From Marivita hallyeonensis (GTDB taxonomy: Bacteria; Pseudomonadota; Alphaproteobacteria; Rhodobacterales; Rhodobacteraceae): a stretch of 64,000 nt of DNA. Positions 25,301 to 51,725 of this stretch are shown here, piece after piece (the stretch's first letter is position 1; each line of letters starts with the position of its first letter). The notes beneath the pieces were generated by a model, which saw only the letters and a program-made list of their open reading frames with translations, did not search any database and was not told the DNA's origin. Location of the stretch: NCBI RefSeq assembly GCF_900129875.1, contig NZ_FQXC01000001.1, positions 310,001 to 374,000 of the forward strand, in the 5' to 3' direction. Position numbers and translations under genes: made by a program.

Positions 25301-25315
25301 GAAGCCCGGTTTAAT

Positions 25316-26135
25316 GGGACTGTTGCGTTAACTGCAGCAGGTTGAAGCCTGTTTTGTTGGGTGACTTTGTCACGTGGCGGCTCCGAACAATTCACTGATG
25401 AAGTCGATCTCGCCTCTGACGCCAGCTTGCTTGTGGTGGATATGACCGCGTTTGATGCTTCGCATTGTCTCAATGCCGCTGAGGGTCGCCTTTGCCGCAA
25501 GCAGCGATCGGAAACTCTGTCGGCAACCGAGGAGCCGCCTCGAGGCGGCGTGGTCGCTCTCGATCAGGTTGTTTCGCCACTTTCGGTCGACGTGCCGTAT
25601 ACTGTCGAAATGCGGATGACATCGGTGCTTTGTTTCTCGGATAACGCGCCGATGCGTATGCGCTTTGCCGGTGCAGGCTGTGACCGACCGGTGCAAACGC
25701 AGGCGCTCGATCGCCTTGCGCAGGAAAGCCCATGCGACCTTTGCGTCACGCCGCGCTTTCAGTCGGAAATTGACCATCTGACCGTTTGCATCGATCGCGC
25801 GCCAGAGGTAGCGCCACTTGCTGCCGACCCGAATGTAGGTCTCGTCCACGTGCCAATCTTCGCTGGATCGGCGTAAGTGTTTCTAGGTTCGTTTGGTCAA
25901 TTCAGGGCCAAATTTCTGAATCCAGCGATACACGGTCGAGCGGTCAACTAAGTTGCCGCATTCTGCCATAAGGTCGACGACATTCTGATAGGGCAGGCGG
26001 TGGCGCAAATACCAACGCACGGAGCGCAGAATGACGTCTTGAGGGAAGCGGTGATGTTTAAAAGGCGATTTGTAGGGCAAGTTAAACACCCAAGACCAAA
26101 GGCCGCCCAAATCCTCCCATTGATGCAAAAGTCCC
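25316..26135 (-). mobile_element. IS6-family insertion sequence, 820 bp
   Basis: The ends are GGGACTGTTGC (25316-25326) and its near-complement GCAAAAGTCCC (26125-26135), one mismatch in 11, the IS6/IS26 type of terminal repeat. The length of 820 bp equals that of IS26. No 8-bp target duplication is visible at the ends (ggtttaat versus cttaattc), so one flank has probably rearranged. Confidence 0.8.
25370..26100 (-). pseudogene. IS6-family transposase with internal amber codon
   Basis: The N-terminal part (HHRFPQDVILRSVRWYL, STVYRWIQKFGPELTKRT) and the C-terminal DDE part (WHVDETYIRV ... YLWRAIDANGQ, IESDHAA) are in the same frame, separated by a single TAG at 25883-25885 where relatives have a Glu codon (GAG). 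The DDE residues look intact. The exact start is uncertain. Translation would stop before the catalytic domain unless the codon is read through. Confidence 0.8.
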
Positions 26136-26148
26136 CTTAATTCAAATT

Positions 26149-26976
26149 TCAGCGAATATGAGTCGAGCTGGATGTTCTTGCGCGTTCGAACGCGATGATC
26201 GAAACGTGATCTTTTTCGAAACGCTGCTCGCCCTCGATAACCATTTTGGGAAACCAATTACGGATGGTGTCGATTTTCGGACAGATTGGCACAATCCAGT
26301 CGAACAGCGAGATGACCTGAGTTTTTGCACCGACTAGGTGCTGCACGGCATCAAAAAGCTCAAACCAAACGTTGAGGAGCGGCTGATGCGTCTTCAGTGC
26401 TATGCCCGCATCCCTTGCGGAACAGGCACTCCAACGGGATATCAGTTGGATCGACATTTCTCTGGACGATCGGGCATTCCACAGTTCGACAATTCGGTCC
26501 GTTCGTTGGGCAGCGCGCGTCATTATACCAAGTTGCGATCCAGCCAAGCGAAAACAATCTCCAGGAGAGAAAACGCCTTGCAACCACATTCCCCCAGGTT
26601 TCAGCACCCTTGCTATCTCCGACGAGGCCAGAGCGCAGGCATCCTGGTCATCACAAGGCAATACACCGGTTGAGCCCAGAACAGTTGCGAAAGCTGCATC
26701 ACGAAAGGGCAGTTGCGGAAGCTGCGCGACCACTGTCGAAACCCCGCGCCGTTTGTGTGCCTCCAGAGCCATCGACAGGCTCTGATCCACGGCGACGACG
26801 CGTCCCGCTTTCCAACTGCGCAATCCATCCACCAATATTCCCTGTCCCGAGCCGATGACGAGACACGGAAAAGCAATTGCGGTCTTGAAATGCTCTAAAT
26901 GGTCGATCCTTAACCCATCTTCTTCAAGGAGCGACCATATTCGGGCCAACGCATCCCACTGAGCGCTACGTGGCAA
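26149..26976 (-). CDS. Class I SAM-dependent methyltransferase
   Basis: 275 residues with the SAM-binding glycine motif VIGSGQG near residue 42, an acidic VVAVDQS after the second strand, and a VLKPGGMWLQG post-motif, as in Methyltransf_11 proteins. The likely start is TTG 26976. It follows the Hint gene in the same reading frame with only TAG-ATT between that gene's last codon and the TTG, so it is coupled to it or was once fused. The substrate is unknown. It ends 14 bases from the IS6 element. Confidence 0.75.
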   Translation of the reverse strand: MPRSAQWDALARIWSLLEEDGLRIDHLEHFKTAIAFPCLVIGSGQGILVDGLRSWKAGRVVAVDQSLSMALEAHKRRGVSTVVAQLPQLPFRDAAFATVLGSTGVLPCDDQDACALASSEIARVLKPGGMWLQGVFSPGDCFRLAGSQLGIMTRAAQRTDRIVELWNARSSREMSIQLISRWSACSARDAGIALKTHQPLLNVWFELFDAVQHLVGAKTQVISLFDWIVPICPKIDTIRNWFPKMVIEGEQRFEKDHVSIIAFERARTSSSTHIR

Positions 26977-26979
26977 AAT

Positions 26980-27915
26980 CTAATGATCTCGAACGATCAA
27001 GCCATGATCGCCGACAAGAAAAGTGTCGAACCCTTCGACAACCAGATTGTATACCTTGTCAACATACCCGGCAAAAGTTCGGGCATCCAGACTGATCACA
27101 CCACCCCGGCTGCACAACGGGGTCTTGGCGCTAAGTTTCTCTGTTGGTGTCCAAGGCATTCGGTCAACCGCGAAGCGGTGCCCATCCGTTGCTGAAACAA
27201 ACTTGCCCATTGTCTCAAGCCGCGTCACGGGGAACCGACCGGCATGAACATCTTTTTTTTCCAGTCTTGCTGGCTCGACAGTGTGCCTTTGCGGGTTCCA
27301 TGCAAGAATCGAATCCCCTTCTTCGAGGGTTTCAATCGCCTTAAATCCTTGGGGCGTATGAATGGAAGTTCCGGCGGCAAAACAACATGCTTTGCGCGAC
27401 CAATCGACTTCTGTTGGCGGCGGTGGTGGCTCGTCCCAACACCGATCCGCATTGCACAAAACATAAGGTTCAAGGCTATAATTAACCCTAAGGACAGAAT
27501 TGTGAAGGCCCGTGCCGGCTCTGACCGTGACGTTCCAAATACCTGCCAAAGCCCGCATCAGAGACCGGTTCTGTCCAGATTCGCAGTGCTGCAAATGGAC
27601 GGTTGCACCGGCTGAAAAATACGGGGTCAGCCGACCCAGCTCAGCTGAATAATGCGGCAATGTGCCAGCGGTTATCCATTGGTCGCCGATCTGAATACCA
27701 TTGGGGTTTCCGTGATCCAAAATGTTCAACCATGAAATGGAATTTCCGTCCAAAACGGCAATAACGTTGTCAACCATCGTCTGAACGCTTGTCATGGTCA
27801 CCACATTGGACTCACGACTCCGCGTGAAAGCTGCCATAGGCCCTGTGTATCTTGGTATGAAGTACCAAGCGCCATCCTCTGTCCGGTCATCGATTGCTGT
27901 TACAGCTAGCCCCAA
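26980..27915 (-). CDS. Caspase/DUF4347-like protein with C-terminal Hint domain
   Basis: 311 residues. Residues about 40-140 resemble DUF4347/caspase-like domains, with His68 in LDHGNPNG and Cys111 in HLQHCESG placed like a His-Cys protease dyad. A PPPPP linker (163-167) leads to a Hint (intein/hedgehog-type) domain from Cys178 (CFAAGTSIHTPQGF) with the block-B T243-D-G-H246. It ends GDHGLIVRDH, without the His-Asn needed for splicing, so N-terminal cleavage is the expected activity. The TTG start at 27915 has a GAAGGA site 8 bases upstream. Composition is visibly richer in AT than the flanks. Confidence 0.7.
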   Translation of the reverse strand: MGLAVTAIDDRTEDGAWYFIPRYTGPMAAFTRSRESNVVTMTSVQTMVDNVIAVLDGNSISWLNILDHGNPNGIQIGDQWITAGTLPHYSAELGRLTPYFSAGATVHLQHCESGQNRSLMRALAGIWNVTVRAGTGLHNSVLRVNYSLEPYVLCNADRCWDEPPPPPTEVDWSRKACCFAAGTSIHTPQGFKAIETLEEGDSILAWNPQRHTVEPARLEKKDVHAGRFPVTRLETMGKFVSATDGHRFAVDRMPWTPTEKLSAKTPLCSRGGVISLDARTFAGYVDKVYNLVVEGFDTFLVGDHGLIVRDH

Positions 27916-28099
27916 CGAACTATTCCTTCAAATAAACGATCGAAAAATACGCAAATACTGTCGCAGCAATTACATGATTCGGTCAACGCTTTTGATATCA
28001 TCGCGCCACTATGCGCCGGTTCCGAAAGGCATCGCGCGGGGAGATTTGGGCAGTCGCGCACGCATTTGCCAAAATGCTAGTCCCGCGACACGTTCACCT
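27916..28099. other. Spacer with no recognised gene
   Basis: About 185 bases between the Hint gene and the IS481 relic. It should contain the promoter of the Hint-methyltransferase pair on the minus strand. No clear motif was found. Confidence 0.35.
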
Positions 28100-28369
28100 C
28101 CAATCTGAAGCCAACAACAGTCACGCGTTCGTCGCACGTGAGCACTGGCCAGCGCGACGCGATGCTCGCAGCGCTTCGACGAAATAGCCTGCTTTCGTTC
28201 GGCGACTGCCTTTACGAGCGTCCACCGTCGATTCCGCATCTGACGCGCTCAGTGCTTCACAGGTGGTTGCCAATACACCGCATTCACGGCCCGGAAGACA
28301 GATCTCGACCGAAGTTAGAAAGGAGCAGCTATGCCAAATATCACCATTGAGCTGAACCTAAACGAAGAG
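28100..28369 (+). pseudogene. IS481-family transposase relic
   Basis: The plus strand encodes LRRNSLLSFGDCLYERPPSI followed by PHLTRSVLHR, the helix-turn-helix region of IS481-type transposases (family pattern LLPLDDCLYAL..TIPHLTRSSLHRCLQRHGI). After a stop at about 28348 the reading resembles the next family block (YPIGYFHIDIAEV) and then is cut at 28370 by the IS3 element. The DDE core is missing, so it is dead. Confidence 0.6.
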
Positions 28370-28395
28370 TGACCTGCTCCACTTTGAGTCCGCGT

Positions 28396-29260
28396 CTATA
28401 GGTTAGCTCTGTTCAGGGTTTGGTCCTCTTCTGATCTTTGGTGATACTCGTGCGGGGAGAGCCCGTCGAGGCTCGAGTGTGAGCGGTGGTGATCGTAGTC
28501 GTCGCGCCATGCCGCGATCAGATGGCGGGCATGGCGCAGGGTCGGGAACAGGTGCTCGTTCAGGCACTCGTCTCGCAGGCGGCCATTGAAGCTTTCCACG
28601 ATGCCGTTCTGCATCTGCTTGCCCGGTGCGATGTAGTGCCATTCCACACGTCGATCTTCCGGCCATTTGAGCATAGCGTTCGATGTCAGCTCGGTGCCCC
28701 CTCTCGGCAGACTTACTGCGCAAATCGCCTGCCGGGCAATGGTTGTCGCTGACCACCATGCAGGGGGAGCCCCGCATCTCGGCGATCCGGTCGAGTTCGC
28801 GGGCGACGCGTATGCCCGAGAACGAGGTATCCACGACCGTCGCCAGGCATTCCCGGCTGAAGTCGTCGATCACACAGAGGATGCGGAACCGGCGGCCAAC
28901 CGACAGCGCGTCTGATACGAAGTCGAGCGACCAGCGCTGGTTCGGACCTTGAGGGATGGTCATCGAAGCTCTGGTCCCGATCGCGCGCTTGCGTCCGCAC
29001 CATTTACGGACGGCTAACCCTTCTTCGCGGTAGAGCCGGTAGAGCTTCTTCCAGTTCACTTCCCAGCCCTCCCGCTTCAGTAGGATGTGCAGCCGCCGGT
29101 AGCCGAACCGCCGCCGCTCCGAGGCCAGTTCCCTCATCCTGGCCCGCAGCGCCGTATCAGCCGGACGCTTTGAGCGGCGCTGATAGACAAGCGGATCGAT
29201 CCCCGCGAGCGCACAGGCCCGCCGCTGCGAGTAGCTCTTCGCTTGCATGGCCCAGTCCAC
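28396..29260 (-). pseudogene. IS3-family transposase orfB, disrupted by a 43-bp insertion
   Basis: The N-terminal half reads normally (RRFGYRRLHILLKREGWEV, GPNQRWSLDFVSDAL with the first Asp, DDFSRECLA). After MVVSDN the family motif should continue GTELTS, but 43 extra bases intervene and shift the frame; the C-terminal part ([20 protein letters not shown] with the catalytic Glu) resumes in another frame to 28396. The extra segment has CGGCAG/CTGCCG arms. Confidence 0.85.
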
Positions 29261-29550
29261 AGCCTTCCTCCTCGAACCGGGCCTCGGAAGTTTTTTCCGA
29301 GCATCTCTTTCAGCGTCGCTTCATCCATCATTTGCTCCGCAAGCATCTTCTTGAGCTTCGCGTTCTCGGCTTCCAGCGCCTGCAGCCGCTTGGCATCGGC
29401 GACTTCCATGCCGCCATACTTGCGACGCCAGTTGTAGAAGGTCGCATCACTGATCCCGTGCTTGCGGCACAGATCGAACGCGCTCATGCCCGCCTGATGC
29501 TCCTTCAGAATGCCAATCATCTGCGCTTCGCTGAAACGGCTTCTCTTCAT
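29134..29550 (-). CDS. IS3-family transposase orfA
   Basis: The N-terminal about 90 residues form the orfA helix-turn-helix (FSEAQMIGILKEHQAGM, CRKHGISDATFYNWRRKYGG) and leucine-zipper region (LEAENAKLKKMLAEQ). A GGAAAAAAC run near 29290 fits the programmed -1 frameshift that joins orfA to orfB in IS3 elements; the residues after it in this frame are probably not family sequence. Confidence 0.8.
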   Translation of the reverse strand: MKRSRFSEAQMIGILKEHQAGMSAFDLCRKHGISDATFYNWRRKYGGMEVADAKRLQALEAENAKLKKMLAEQMMDEATLKEMLGKNFRGPVRGGRLWTGPCKRRATRSGGPVRSRGSIRLSISAAQSVRLIRRCGPG

Positions 29551-29654
29551 CGTCTGTCTCCTCGTTCGGAGAACAGGCTAACCTCAAACCGAGGACTTTC
29601 AGGGGAGCAGGTCACCAGGCTTGCGTGTCGGGATGAAAGCCAAGCCAAACCGTG

Positions 29655-29855
29655 TCAGATTTGTTGGGGCAAGCAAGTGCAATACCGAATAATTGAGAGC
29701 TTCAACGCCCGTCTGCAAAACGATTGCCTGAACGAGCATTTGCGGCCCACCCTACGAGATCCTAGTTAACTGATCGCGGCATGGCGCTACGACGACAATC
29801 CATACCGCCCGCATTCGTGGCTCGACGAACTCGCTCCGCTGTAGCATCACCAAAG
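29655..29855 (+). pseudogene. Second IS3 transposase C-terminal relic
   Basis: The plus strand reads VQYRIIESFNARLQNDCLNE then HLRPTLRD, a stop, and LIAAWRYDDNPYRPHSWLDEL, the catalytic-Glu end of an IS3-type transposase with stop codons. It is distinct from the adjacent IS3 copy (opposite strand, diverged). Confidence 0.7.
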
Positions 29856-30204
29856 CTTGAGAGAGGACGAACCTCTGGGTACAGCTAACCTGAAAACGTG
29901 CACTCCAAGGTGCTTAAGTCAGGCTATACGCAACAGCAAATTGTTTTCGCTGGTTCGCACTTCAGTCAACTTGTTCTGCGATATCCTGCAGCTTTGAAAA
30001 TAGCAAAATTGGTCGACGCCACCCACGCACGATTGGTGTAGACGATGGTCAGAGTTTGCTTGCATCTCAACACTTTTGTCGTCCGATAGACCAAGAAAGG
30101 TCCTCATGTCGGGACGTAAATTCCCTAAAGCAGTCTGCGCCGGGATCGCTAAGACGACAACAGAATATCATTGCCTCGGCACGTTTTCCGACCACAGTAA
30201 TCTT
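29856..30204. other. Region before hypF with no recognised gene
   Basis: About 350 bases between the IS relic and hypF. In R. capsulatus the sensor genes hupTUV lie upstream of hypF; here I see no trace of them. The frame of hypF stays open upstream to 30076, but that extension is not hypF-like. The hypF promoter should lie here. Confidence 0.4.
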
Positions 30205-50837: not shown

Positions 50838-51725
50838 TTAAAGAAGCTCCCACAACTCCCGCGTCACCTGATCGAAAAGGGATGGGTTTGCATAAGCCGA
50901 GATTGTGAGTTCAGCGCGCCAATGCTGTTGTCCAATTGGGGTGACGCTTCCGTCCGCCAATTCGGACTGTATCGCGGTTTCTGGCATCCAGGCGAAACCG
51001 CTGCCAGCCATCAGTCGGCGTTTGATTGCCTCGACGAGGGCGTCGACGTAAATCGTTTCGGCATGGAACGGTTTGCGTCCGATCGTTTGCTCGACAACCA
51101 TACCGAGAAAACTTGATCGCTCATATGCAAGGTAGGAGATCTTTTGCCTGGCTCGATTATCCAAGTTCCATGCGTGCTTTTGGGCTGTGGCCGTGGCGGC
51201 GACGGGGATCAACATATCTGTCAGGAGGTCTTTGCGCTCGAACGCGGTCTCATCGATGGTAGGTGAGACTGCTCCGTGTGCATAACAGAGCATGATGTCG
51301 ACCGCGCCCTCCATCAAAAGCTCACAACACGTGCTCAGGGAATCCGAGATGACGCGGGTGCGCATGCCGGGCAGCTGGCCCTGCAGTGTTTCGATGCGCT
51401 TTGCGAGGTAATTGACTGAGATCGTATGCAGGACCGAGAAGCGAATGAAGCGATGTTCACCGCGGTCCGCATCGCGCAGGAGCTGGCGTGCTTCGGACAG
51501 CTGGGACAACGCTCCTGTGGCGGTTGGCAAAAACTGTTTTCCTGCTTCGGTGAGCTGTACCGGGTATGTCGCGCGATTGACCAAGGGCAAGCCGACCCAG
51601 CTTTCCAGTGCCTTGATCCGGCGGCTGAATGCGGATTGAGTGATGTTTCTTTCATCAGCAGCTCGCGTGAAGTTTTGCGAGCGCGCCAGACACTCGAAAT
51701 CGCGCAGCCAATTCAGATCCATCAC
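50838..51725 (-). CDS. LysR-family transcriptional regulator
   Basis: 295 residues with an N-terminal LysR helix-turn-helix (LRDFECLARSQNFTRAADER and SQSAFSRRIKALE-type block) and a substrate-binding effector domain. It is divergent from the ABC-transporter/hydantoinase operon and is the obvious candidate regulator; the effector is probably the transported compound or an intermediate. Confidence 0.92.
   Translation of the reverse strand: MMDLNWLRDFECLARSQNFTRAADERNITQSAFSRRIKALESWVGLPLVNRATYPVQLTEAGKQFLPTATGALSQLSEARQLLRDADRGEHRFIRFSVLHTISVNYLAKRIETLQGQLPGMRTRVISDSLSTCCELLMEGAVDIMLCYAHGAVSPTIDETAFERKDLLTDMLIPVAATATAQKHAWNLDNRARQKISYLAYERSSFLGMVVEQTIGRKPFHAETIYVDALVEAIKRRLMAGSGFAWMPETAIQSELADGSVTPIGQQHWRAELTISAYANPSLFDQVTRELWELL

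What the first reader, a model, noticed from the sequence alone, without database searches (positions are those of the whole stretch)
26149..27915. Caspase-like/Hint protein followed in frame by a methyltransferase across a single TAG
Seen: a 311-residue frame with a His68/Cys111 pair placed as in DUF4347/caspase-like folds, then a Hint domain with intact Cys178 and T243-D-G-H246 but no terminal His-Asn. It ends in TAG, then ATT, then TTG starts a methyltransferase in the same frame. Known: Hint domains release or modify the part before them, and in polymorphic toxins they often sit just before an effector. Inference: this is either a stop-restart gene pair or a split caspase-Hint-methyltransferase polypeptide, possibly a toxin or self-processing protein modification system. 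The locus is AT-richer than its flanks and boxed in by IS elements, pointing to recent transfer.
Basis: partly seen in the sequence, partly recalled or inferred. Interest (0 to 1): 0.82.

Follow-up and report, generated by a model that had tools for sequence, protein, structure and literature searches.

The report
Protease-intein effector-like gene plus methyltransferase
An acquired gene pair in a bacterium joins a caspase-like protease domain, of a kind that another bacterium loads into its injection machine, to an intein-like self-cutting domain, with a methyltransferase gene right behind it; the combination looks new, but what it does is untested.

Summary
ORF1 (27915-26980, minus, 311 aa) is a DUF4347 domain (His68, Cys111) plus a bacterial intein-like Hint domain (Cys178, Thr243-Asp-Gly-His246) lacking the terminal His-Asn. 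TAG, ATT, then TTG opens a class I methyltransferase (26976-26149) in the same frame. Added here: DUF4347 is the family of Tce1, a P. aeruginosa Hcp3-bound putative cysteine-protease effector (PDB 9QPE); the host carries a type VI secretion (T6SS) cluster on the same contig; in one genome of the same class a short DUF4347 gene follows tagH in a T6SS cluster. Best reading (0.4): an acquired DUF4347 cysteine-protease effector, probably T6SS-type, whose C-terminal Hint can cut only on its N-side, with a methyltransferase expressed by stop-restart. Against: no T6SS gene adjacent, no close relative of either ORF in the collections searched, a modest Hcp association, both structure predictions failed. 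Read-through or an ancestral single polypeptide has no support but is not excluded. The pair is IS-flanked, has foreign codon usage, and was not found downstream of the same tRNA-Arg at 14 same-genus loci. New variant of known kinds.

The parts
26980..27915 (-). ORF1, 311 aa, TTG start: DUF4347 domain + Pro-rich linker + Hint (bacterial intein-like) domain
   Evidence: no full-length relative in 394 family or 398 phylum genomes
27511..27813 (-). DUF4347 match (residues 35-135), caspase-like putative cysteine protease
   Evidence: E 1.8e-8; E 1.4e-8; family profile hits PDB 9QPE_G, E 1.5e-6
27712..27714 (-). His68 codon (putative catalytic His)
27583..27585 (-). Cys111 codon (putative catalytic Cys)
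26986..27384 (-). Hint / bacterial intein-like domain, residues 178-310
27382..27384 (-). Cys178, Hint nucleophile (Cys1)
   Evidence: invariant in 7 of 7 rows
27178..27189 (-). Thr243-Asp-Gly-His246, Hint TxxH motif
   Evidence: T and H invariant in 7 of 7 rows
26983..26991 (-). Arg309-Asp310-His311: Arg-Asp stands where the terminal His-Asn is lost
   Evidence: His-Asn in 6 of 6 other rows
26977..26982 (-). TAG stop of ORF1 and ATT spacer before ORF2
26149..26976 (-). ORF2, 275 aa, TTG start: class I SAM methyltransferase (motif VIGSGQG); substrate unknown
   Evidence: no close relative
27924..27928 (-). AAGGA, Shine-Dalgarno-like, 8 nt before the TTG of ORF1
   Evidence: by eye in the sequence
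25311..26140 (-). IS6-type element ending 8 bp from the ORF2 stop codon; its transposase frame is cut by a TAG at 25883-25885
   Evidence: limits inferred from end repeats matching in 12 of 14 bases
28369..29615 (-). IS3-type element upstream of ORF1
   Evidence: inverted repeats; IS3 plasmid matches
24952..25028 (+). tRNA-Arg(ACG), the edge of genus-conserved synteny

Best explanation
ORF1 is a horizontally acquired cysteine-protease effector of the DUF4347 (Tce-like) kind, most likely a cytoplasmic cargo loaded by the cell's own type VI secretion system, carrying a C-terminal intein-like (Hint) domain as an N-side self-cleavage module. Steps: (1) ORF1 and ORF2 are read from one message, ORF2 by re-initiation at the TTG three bases after the TAG (inferred from the sequence). 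(2) The N-domain has the family's His/Cys pair and is probably a protease (inferred from family members). (3) Cys178 with Thr243/His246 can make a thioester with residue 177; water or a thiol then frees residues 1-177 (inferred from Hint chemistry). Since His-Asn is missing and nothing of note follows, C-side cleavage and splicing are lost and not needed. (4) Delivery through Hcp into a neighbour (inferred, weakest step). (5) The methyltransferase is a co-acquired partner of unknown substrate: protective modification, a second cargo, or effector modification cannot be told apart.
For: Domains and residues. DUF4347 profile A3 (33 rows, ORF1 included) hits PDB 9QPE_G 'DUF4347 domain-containing protein', E 1.5e-6; that entry is the Hcp3-Tce1 (PA0256) complex, Tce1 being a putative cysteine protease effector, and the companion Tce2 impairs yeast growth depending on its predicted active site (PMC13323088, passages). 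PA0256 bears DUF4347 (PMC8262886, passage) and is 310 aa; ORF1 is 311 aa and shows no evident signal peptide (by eye). Own T6SS cluster on the same contig: ImpA_N, VipA, VipB, Hcp, ImpE, TssF, an AAA ATPase, VgrG, FHA, TssK, TssL. In G1151, same class, a DUF4347 ORF with a weak PG_binding_1 match begins 3 nt after a tagH-like ORF, both downstream of vgrG on one strand. Hcp is in 4 of 4 same-family genomes found with short (<350 aa) DUF4347 frames, the window's own included; base rate 37 of 149, own included. Hint similarity to bacterial intein-like domains; B-type BILs lack the C-terminal motif yet can cleave N-terminally (PMC7765530, passage). Co-transfer: GC3 0.519 and 0.558 against 0.587-0.809 in 26 hand-picked window genes.
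Against: No T6SS gene lies next to ORF1; the T6SS is about 0.7 Mb away. Outside the family the Hcp link is mixed: 2 of 2 and 1 of 4 (where the hits are weak and in atypical frames) of the short-frame holders tested. Large adhesin-type DUF4347 holders have Hcp in 4 of 7, so shortness is not shown to be what associates. The tagH-DUF4347 arrangement was seen in 1 genome; the other 22 genomes of its family gave no match to the gene. ORF1 alone did not hit 9QPE (E up to 10); the link is through the family. PA0256 was toxic to E. coli in the 2021 paper, but in the 2026 paper neither Tce1 nor Tce2 markedly affected E. coli, and Tce1 did not affect yeast. Against one message: two terminator-like sites on the minus strand lie inside ORF1 (27637-27624 and 27040-27024), though the scan found 7 where shuffles give 4.4 (sd 1.9). 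AlphaFold2 models were unusable (pLDDT 35.6 and 42.2).
Confidence: 0.4

Rival explanations
1. An intracellular self-processing caspase-like protease with a methyltransferase partner (regulatory or stress/defence module), not secreted. The Hint removes itself to activate or mark the protease inside its own cell.
For: No evident signal peptide (by eye), no adjacent secretion gene, no immunity gene recognised; close methyltransferase spacing. Caspase-like domains act inside bacterial cells in other systems (recalled).
Against: No PADLOC match for either ORF at E up to 1; the DUF4347 protein with a studied function met here is a T6SS cargo; the DUF4347 ORF of G1151 lies in a T6SS cluster.
Confidence: 0.25
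2. A decaying transferred cassette: a former DUF4347-Hint or DUF4347-Hint-toxin gene that lost its Hint C-end, held between two insertion sequences, with the methyltransferase a chance neighbour.
For: His-Asn lost while 6 of 6 relatives in the alignment keep it; IS6 and IS3 flank, and the IS6 transposase frame is itself broken by a TAG; no close relatives found.
Against: Both frames are open over 311 and 275 codons; His68, Cys111, Cys178, Thr243, His246 and methyltransferase motif I are intact; Shine-Dalgarno-like site before ORF1.
Confidence: 0.2
3. A polymorphic toxin split by one nonsense codon: DUF4347 - Hint - methyltransferase was one polypeptide, with the methyltransferase as the toxin that the Hint released.
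For: Same frame, only TAG-ATT between; Hint usually sits just before the toxin in polymorphic toxins (recalled; the G581 protein printed looks by eye like RHS-type sequence, then a Hint ending in HN, then a C-terminal part).
Against: No full-length relative of ORF1, fused or not, in 394 + 398 genomes, 72,556 plasmid or 50,697 phage records (the genome searches scored at most 5 candidates per genome, and the partial hits were not each checked for a methyltransferase downstream). The residues for release of the C-side part (His-Asn) are gone. Same frame has a 1 in 3 chance.
Confidence: 0.12
4. Programmed read-through or a reassigned TAG joins ORF1 and ORF2 into one protein.
For: In-frame TAG; a second in-frame TAG lies in the neighbouring IS6 transposase frame.
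Against: TAG ends 4 of 26 window genes as an ordinary stop; no read-through context that I recall follows the TAG; the IS6 case is plainly explained by decay of a mobile gene.
Confidence: 0.02

Closest known systems
Tce1 (PA0256; PDB 9QPE) and Tce2 (PA2372), Hcp3-bound T6SS putative cysteine-protease effectors of P. aeruginosa
   Same: Tce1 bears DUF4347; both have a His/Cys pair; Tce1 is 310 aa against 311 aa for ORF1 (passages)
   Different: ORF1 has its protease-like domain at the N-end and a Hint at the C-end; Tce1 has the domain in 110-310 after an N-terminal part, and neither 'hint' nor 'intein' occurs in that paper. Tce1 lies near an orphan vgrG cluster, ORF1 near none; no Hcp binding shown for ORF1
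Bacterial intein-like domain 2LWY (CthBIL4, name recalled), A-type BIL / PT-HINT (PF07591)
   Same: Whole-domain similarity E 1.3e-10; Cys1 and TxxH kept
   Different: ORF1 lacks the terminal His-Asn and has no C-side part, the condition described for B-type BILs
Hint domains of polymorphic toxins such as MafB (seen as search listings only)
   Same: Hint as a C-proximal processing module in a toxin-like protein
   Different: There the toxin follows the Hint (recalled); here the only candidate effector domain precedes it
Short stand-alone DUF4347 proteins of the same family (L002 twice, L005, L006)
   Same: 27-30% identical over the domain, His and Cys kept
   Different: No Hint; no ORF2-like gene recognised by eye among the ORFs around them
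Methyltransf_25/Methyltransf_11 class I methyltransferases
   Same: Pfam domain above cut-off and motif I
   Different: NCBIfam matches are all far below their cut-offs; substrate unknown

Membership tests
DUF4347 (PF14252) | Score above Pfam's gathering cut-off | tested here: met
   34.7 against 24.6 bits
DUF4347 (PF14252) | Conserved His-Gly and Cys columns | tested here: met
   H68-G69 and C111 align
Clan CD / caspase-like cysteine protease | alpha/beta fold with His and Cys at strand ends | tested here: inconclusive
   AlphaFold2 failed; fold inferred from the family's 9QPE
Clan CD / caspase-like cysteine protease | Proteolytic activity | not testable with these tools
   needs an assay
T6SS effector (Tce-like) | Host has a T6SS | tested here: met
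   TssE, TssG, TssJ and TssM were not scanned
T6SS effector (Tce-like) | Gene linked to hcp, vgrG or PAAR | tested here: not met
   none recognised in the ORFs around it; hcp about 0.7 Mb away
T6SS effector (Tce-like) | Hcp binding and T6SS-dependent secretion | not testable with these tools
   needs an experiment
A-type BIL / PT-HINT | Cys1 and TxxH | tested here: met
A-type BIL / PT-HINT | PT-HINT score above Pfam's cut-off | tested here: not met
   21.2 against 27.7 bits
A-type BIL / PT-HINT | Terminal His-Asn | tested here: not met
   Arg-Asp instead; definition from PMC7765530 passage
B-type BIL | Intein motifs except the C-terminal one | tested here: inconclusive
   residue pattern fits, but overall similarity is to 2LWY
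Polymorphic toxin with Hint pre-toxin domain | Toxin domain C-terminal to the Hint in the same protein | tested here: not met
   ORF1 stops one residue after the Hint
Class I SAM methyltransferase | Pfam domain above cut-off | tested here: met
   40.8 against 27 bits

The most novel reading that the evidence does not exclude
A three-part self-processing system: the Hint domain puts a reactive C-terminal thioester on a secreted caspase-like protease (as the hedgehog Hint does on its N-part), and the co-translated methyltransferase modifies that end or its acceptor, giving a C-terminally modified effector.
Probability: 0.06. Interest if true: 0.75.

Novelty: new variant of a known kind. Interest (0 to 1): 0.42.

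Why it matters
DUF4347 was recently tied to type VI effector cargo. A member fused to an intein-like domain that can cut only on its N-side would be a new way to process such an effector, and would make the role of C-terminal Hint domains lacking His-Asn directly testable. The paired methyltransferase could point to a protection or modification step; the 2026 paper found no obvious immunity genes near the P. aeruginosa Tce genes (passage).

Tried and rejected
Rejected: read-through (TAG is an ordinary stop in 4 of 26 window genes). The IS6 frame next door is not part of the system. Similarity of ORF2 to the methyltransferase next to the host's tssA (L080:13404-14615), and of ORF1 to the caspase gene upstream of that T6SS cluster (L080:7431-8969): no alignment better than E 1.3. 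The tagH-DUF4347 order as a widespread arrangement: the gene was found in 1 of 23 genomes of that family.

Led nowhere: both genome-contig scans; viral-contig scans with ORF1 and three DUF4347 proteins (no relative); of three stretches found by pattern, L098 holds a DUF4347 with Asn in place of the His, and L099 and L100 showed none in the frame my script chose, which may not be the frame of the pattern; three Hint-pattern loci were looked at and not used; phages; plasmids for ORF2, for the ORF1 N-domain and for two other short DUF4347 proteins (none; one Dolichospermum plasmid); PHROGs: only weak Hint-region matches for ORF1 and one chance-level match for ORF2; AlphaFold2 with 1 and 3 sequences, so no fold search was run. 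The DUF4347 profile also listed two caspase-3 chains at E 0.94 and 1.7, which is chance level. A paper search for Hint, methyltransferase, caspase and polymorphic toxin listed 4 papers, none with the term 'Hint domain'. My first codon table used a wrong frame for one reference gene (hypF); one search replaces it and only its values are used here.

Full report
What is there. On the minus strand, ORF1 (27915-26980, 311 aa, TTG start, AAGGA 8 nt upstream) is followed in the same frame by TAG, ATT and the TTG of ORF2 (26976-26149, 275 aa). I saw no Shine-Dalgarno-like site before ORF2 by eye, which suits re-initiation after the ORF1 stop. The ORF1 start agrees with two relatives whose proteins begin at the same place in the alignment (L002). 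A consensus scan finds two terminator-like sites on the minus strand inside ORF1 (27637-27624, 27040-27024), which would speak against one message; but it finds 7 in the region where shuffles give 4.4 (sd 1.9), so they are near chance.

ORF1 N-domain. Pfam DUF4347 scores 34.7 bits against a cut-off of 24.6. In the 33-row alignment Gly69, Cys111 and Ala133 are nearly invariant; the His is replaced in 3 rows (Glu in L042 and L043, Trp in L063, which also has Ser for the Cys) and not covered in one (L057). That alignment left out L045, which carries an internal TAG, L055, which is ORF1 itself, and two hits for which no locus was held. The profile of this alignment, which contains ORF1, finds PDB 9QPE chain G, 'DUF4347 domain-containing protein', at E 1.5e-6. 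ORF1 alone does not find it at E up to 10. Paper passages identify 9QPE as the Hcp3-Tce1 complex: Tce1 (PA0256, His186/Cys240) and Tce2 (PA2372, His65/Cys115) are described there as putative cysteine proteases by structural likeness to a known toxin protease domain. Tce2 impaired yeast growth and mutation of its predicted active site relieved this. Tce1 did not affect yeast, and neither markedly affected E. coli. An earlier paper (passages) reported PA0256 as toxic in E. coli and as bearing DUF4347. So the family's function is emerging and the two papers differ.

ORF1 C-domain. Hint_2 and PT-HINT match below their own cut-offs, but phmmer finds the bacterial intein-like domain 2LWY at E 1.3e-10, and the 7-row Hint profile finds 2LWY at E 2.6e-36 and many inteins. 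Cys178, Thr243 and His246 are invariant in 7 of 7 rows. The terminal His-Asn is present in 6 of 6 other rows and is Arg-Asp in ORF1, followed by one His and the stop. A review states that B-type BILs share the intein motifs except the C-terminal one and can cleave their N-terminal part, while A-type BILs contain conserved His-Asn at their C-terminal ends (PMC7765530, passage). ORF1 therefore looks like an A-type-like Hint that kept the N-side chemistry and lost the C-side chemistry, with nothing after it to cut off.

ORF2. A class I methyltransferase (Methyltransf_25 40.8 bits, cut-off 27; Methyltransf_11 38.6 bits, cut-off 21.2). NCBIfam gives only matches far below cut-off, PDB only weak methyltransferase hits, best E 8.5e-5. 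No substrate can be named.

Rarity. ORF1 has no full-length relative in 394 genomes of its family (73 have a match at E 1e-3, its own included; the other 72 are partial) or 398 genomes of the phylum (10 at E 1e-5, its own included; the other 9 partial); these searches scored at most 5 candidates per genome. Elsewhere: plasmids 4 records, Hint part only; phages none; viral contigs none; species genomes none. ORF2 has, at E 1e-8, one partial match other than itself in 292 genomes of the order (G405, 38% over residues 43-137) and none other than itself in 299 genomes of the phylum, none in plasmids or species genomes. Hence the question whether the two genes are adjacent elsewhere cannot be answered. 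Four papers in the held library mention DUF4347 (search listing); in the three paper searches that bear on it (listings) I saw none that joins DUF4347 to a Hint domain.

Type VI link. The window's genome has Hcp inside a cluster on the same contig with ImpA_N, VipA, VipB, ImpE, TssF, an AAA ATPase, VgrG, an FHA protein, TssK and TssL. TssE, TssG, TssJ and TssM were not scanned. Of short-frame (<350 aa) DUF4347 holders found, Hcp is present in 4 of 4 genomes of the window's family (G000, G232, G294, G004) and in G1076 and G1151, and in 1 of 4 others (G1014 yes but weak and in atypical frames; G976, G840, G1030 no): 7 of 10 in all. The base rate in the family is 37 of 149, own genome included. 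In those 149 genomes, DUF4347 of any size goes with Hcp in 6 of 9 against 31 of 140 without (Fisher one-sided p 0.008; own genome counted; 'without' means no match at E 1e-4). Large adhesin-type holders alone are 4 of 7, so the link is not shown to be specific to short proteins. The sharpest single piece is G1151: a tagH-like ORF (T6SS_FHA_C domain), then, 3 nt after its stop by longest-ORF start, a DUF4347 ORF with a weak peptidoglycan-binding match; vgrG lies upstream on the same strand, with about 0.67 kb between vgrG and tagH that I did not annotate. The gene gave no match in the other 22 genomes of that family searched.

Origin. GC3 is 0.519 (ORF1) and 0.558 (ORF2) against 0.587-0.809, median 0.761, in 26 window genes that I picked by hand. 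An IS6-type element ends 8 bp from the ORF2 stop codon and an IS3-type element lies upstream of ORF1. In 17 genomes of the genus, own included, the stretch holding the end of a kinase-like gene and the tRNA-Arg is conserved in 16, and the match to the others ends within 20 nt after the tRNA. At 14 of the 15 other loci (G1186 was not fetched; its match lies at a contig edge) I read downstream of that tRNA (1.4 to 15.3 kb each; 4 of them shorter than 9 kb): none encodes ORF1, ORF2, the IS6 or IS3 protein or the three hydrogenase-type proteins tested, at E 1e-5 (hydrogenase and kinase are named by eye). In 6 of the 14 a LysR-type gene whose printed start resembles window 50838-51725 is the first or second listed ORF after the tRNA (by eye). 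The pair thus lies in a variable, probably acquired region of up to about 26 kb.

Mechanism and limits. Shown: sequence, domains, conserved residues, co-direction, variable setting, presence of a T6SS. Inferred: re-initiation, protease activity, Cys178-dependent N-side cleavage, Hcp delivery, and any role for the methyltransferase. Both AlphaFold2 attempts gave unusable models, so the fold claim rests on family homology.

Verdict. The most useful addition is the DUF4347-T6SS effector connection. It is a new variant of known kinds: an effector-type DUF4347 protease domain with a C-terminal, N-side-only Hint, paired with an orphan methyltransferase.

Noticed in passing
window 25883-25885: The IS6 transposase frame (25370 to about 26140) is interrupted by an in-frame TAG; with the ORF1-ORF2 TAG this makes two in-frame TAGs within about 1.1 kb, read here as ordinary decay of the IS.
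   Followed up: partly
L080:7431-8969 and L080:13404-14615 (own genome, C9, about 0.7 Mb from the window): The host T6SS cluster has a Peptidase_C14 caspase gene with Sel1 repeats upstream and a methyltransferase gene beside tssA; neither resembles ORF1 or ORF2.
   Followed up: partly
window 25029-50837: Up to about 26 kb between tRNA-Arg and a LysR-type gene, including a [NiFe] hydrogenase-like cluster (named by eye), appears to be inserted relative to several same-genus genomes in which a LysR-type gene follows the tRNA.
   Followed up: partly
window 28382-28624 and 29667-29909: 243-nt arms 72% complementary: perhaps a degenerate second IS3-like end beside the IS3 element.
   Followed up: no
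L002 1282-1878 and 2059-2691 (minus): Two neighbouring short DUF4347 genes (198 and 210 aa) in one genome of the same family, without Hint.
   Followed up: partly
L071:1961-5314: A viral-contig Gly/Pro-rich protein of 1117 aa carries an intein-like domain ending in His-Asn in its middle.
   Followed up: no
L040:1961-2494: A frame with many repeats of a HPTGYWPAPSVESMSD-like unit near a DUF4347 match.
   Followed up: no
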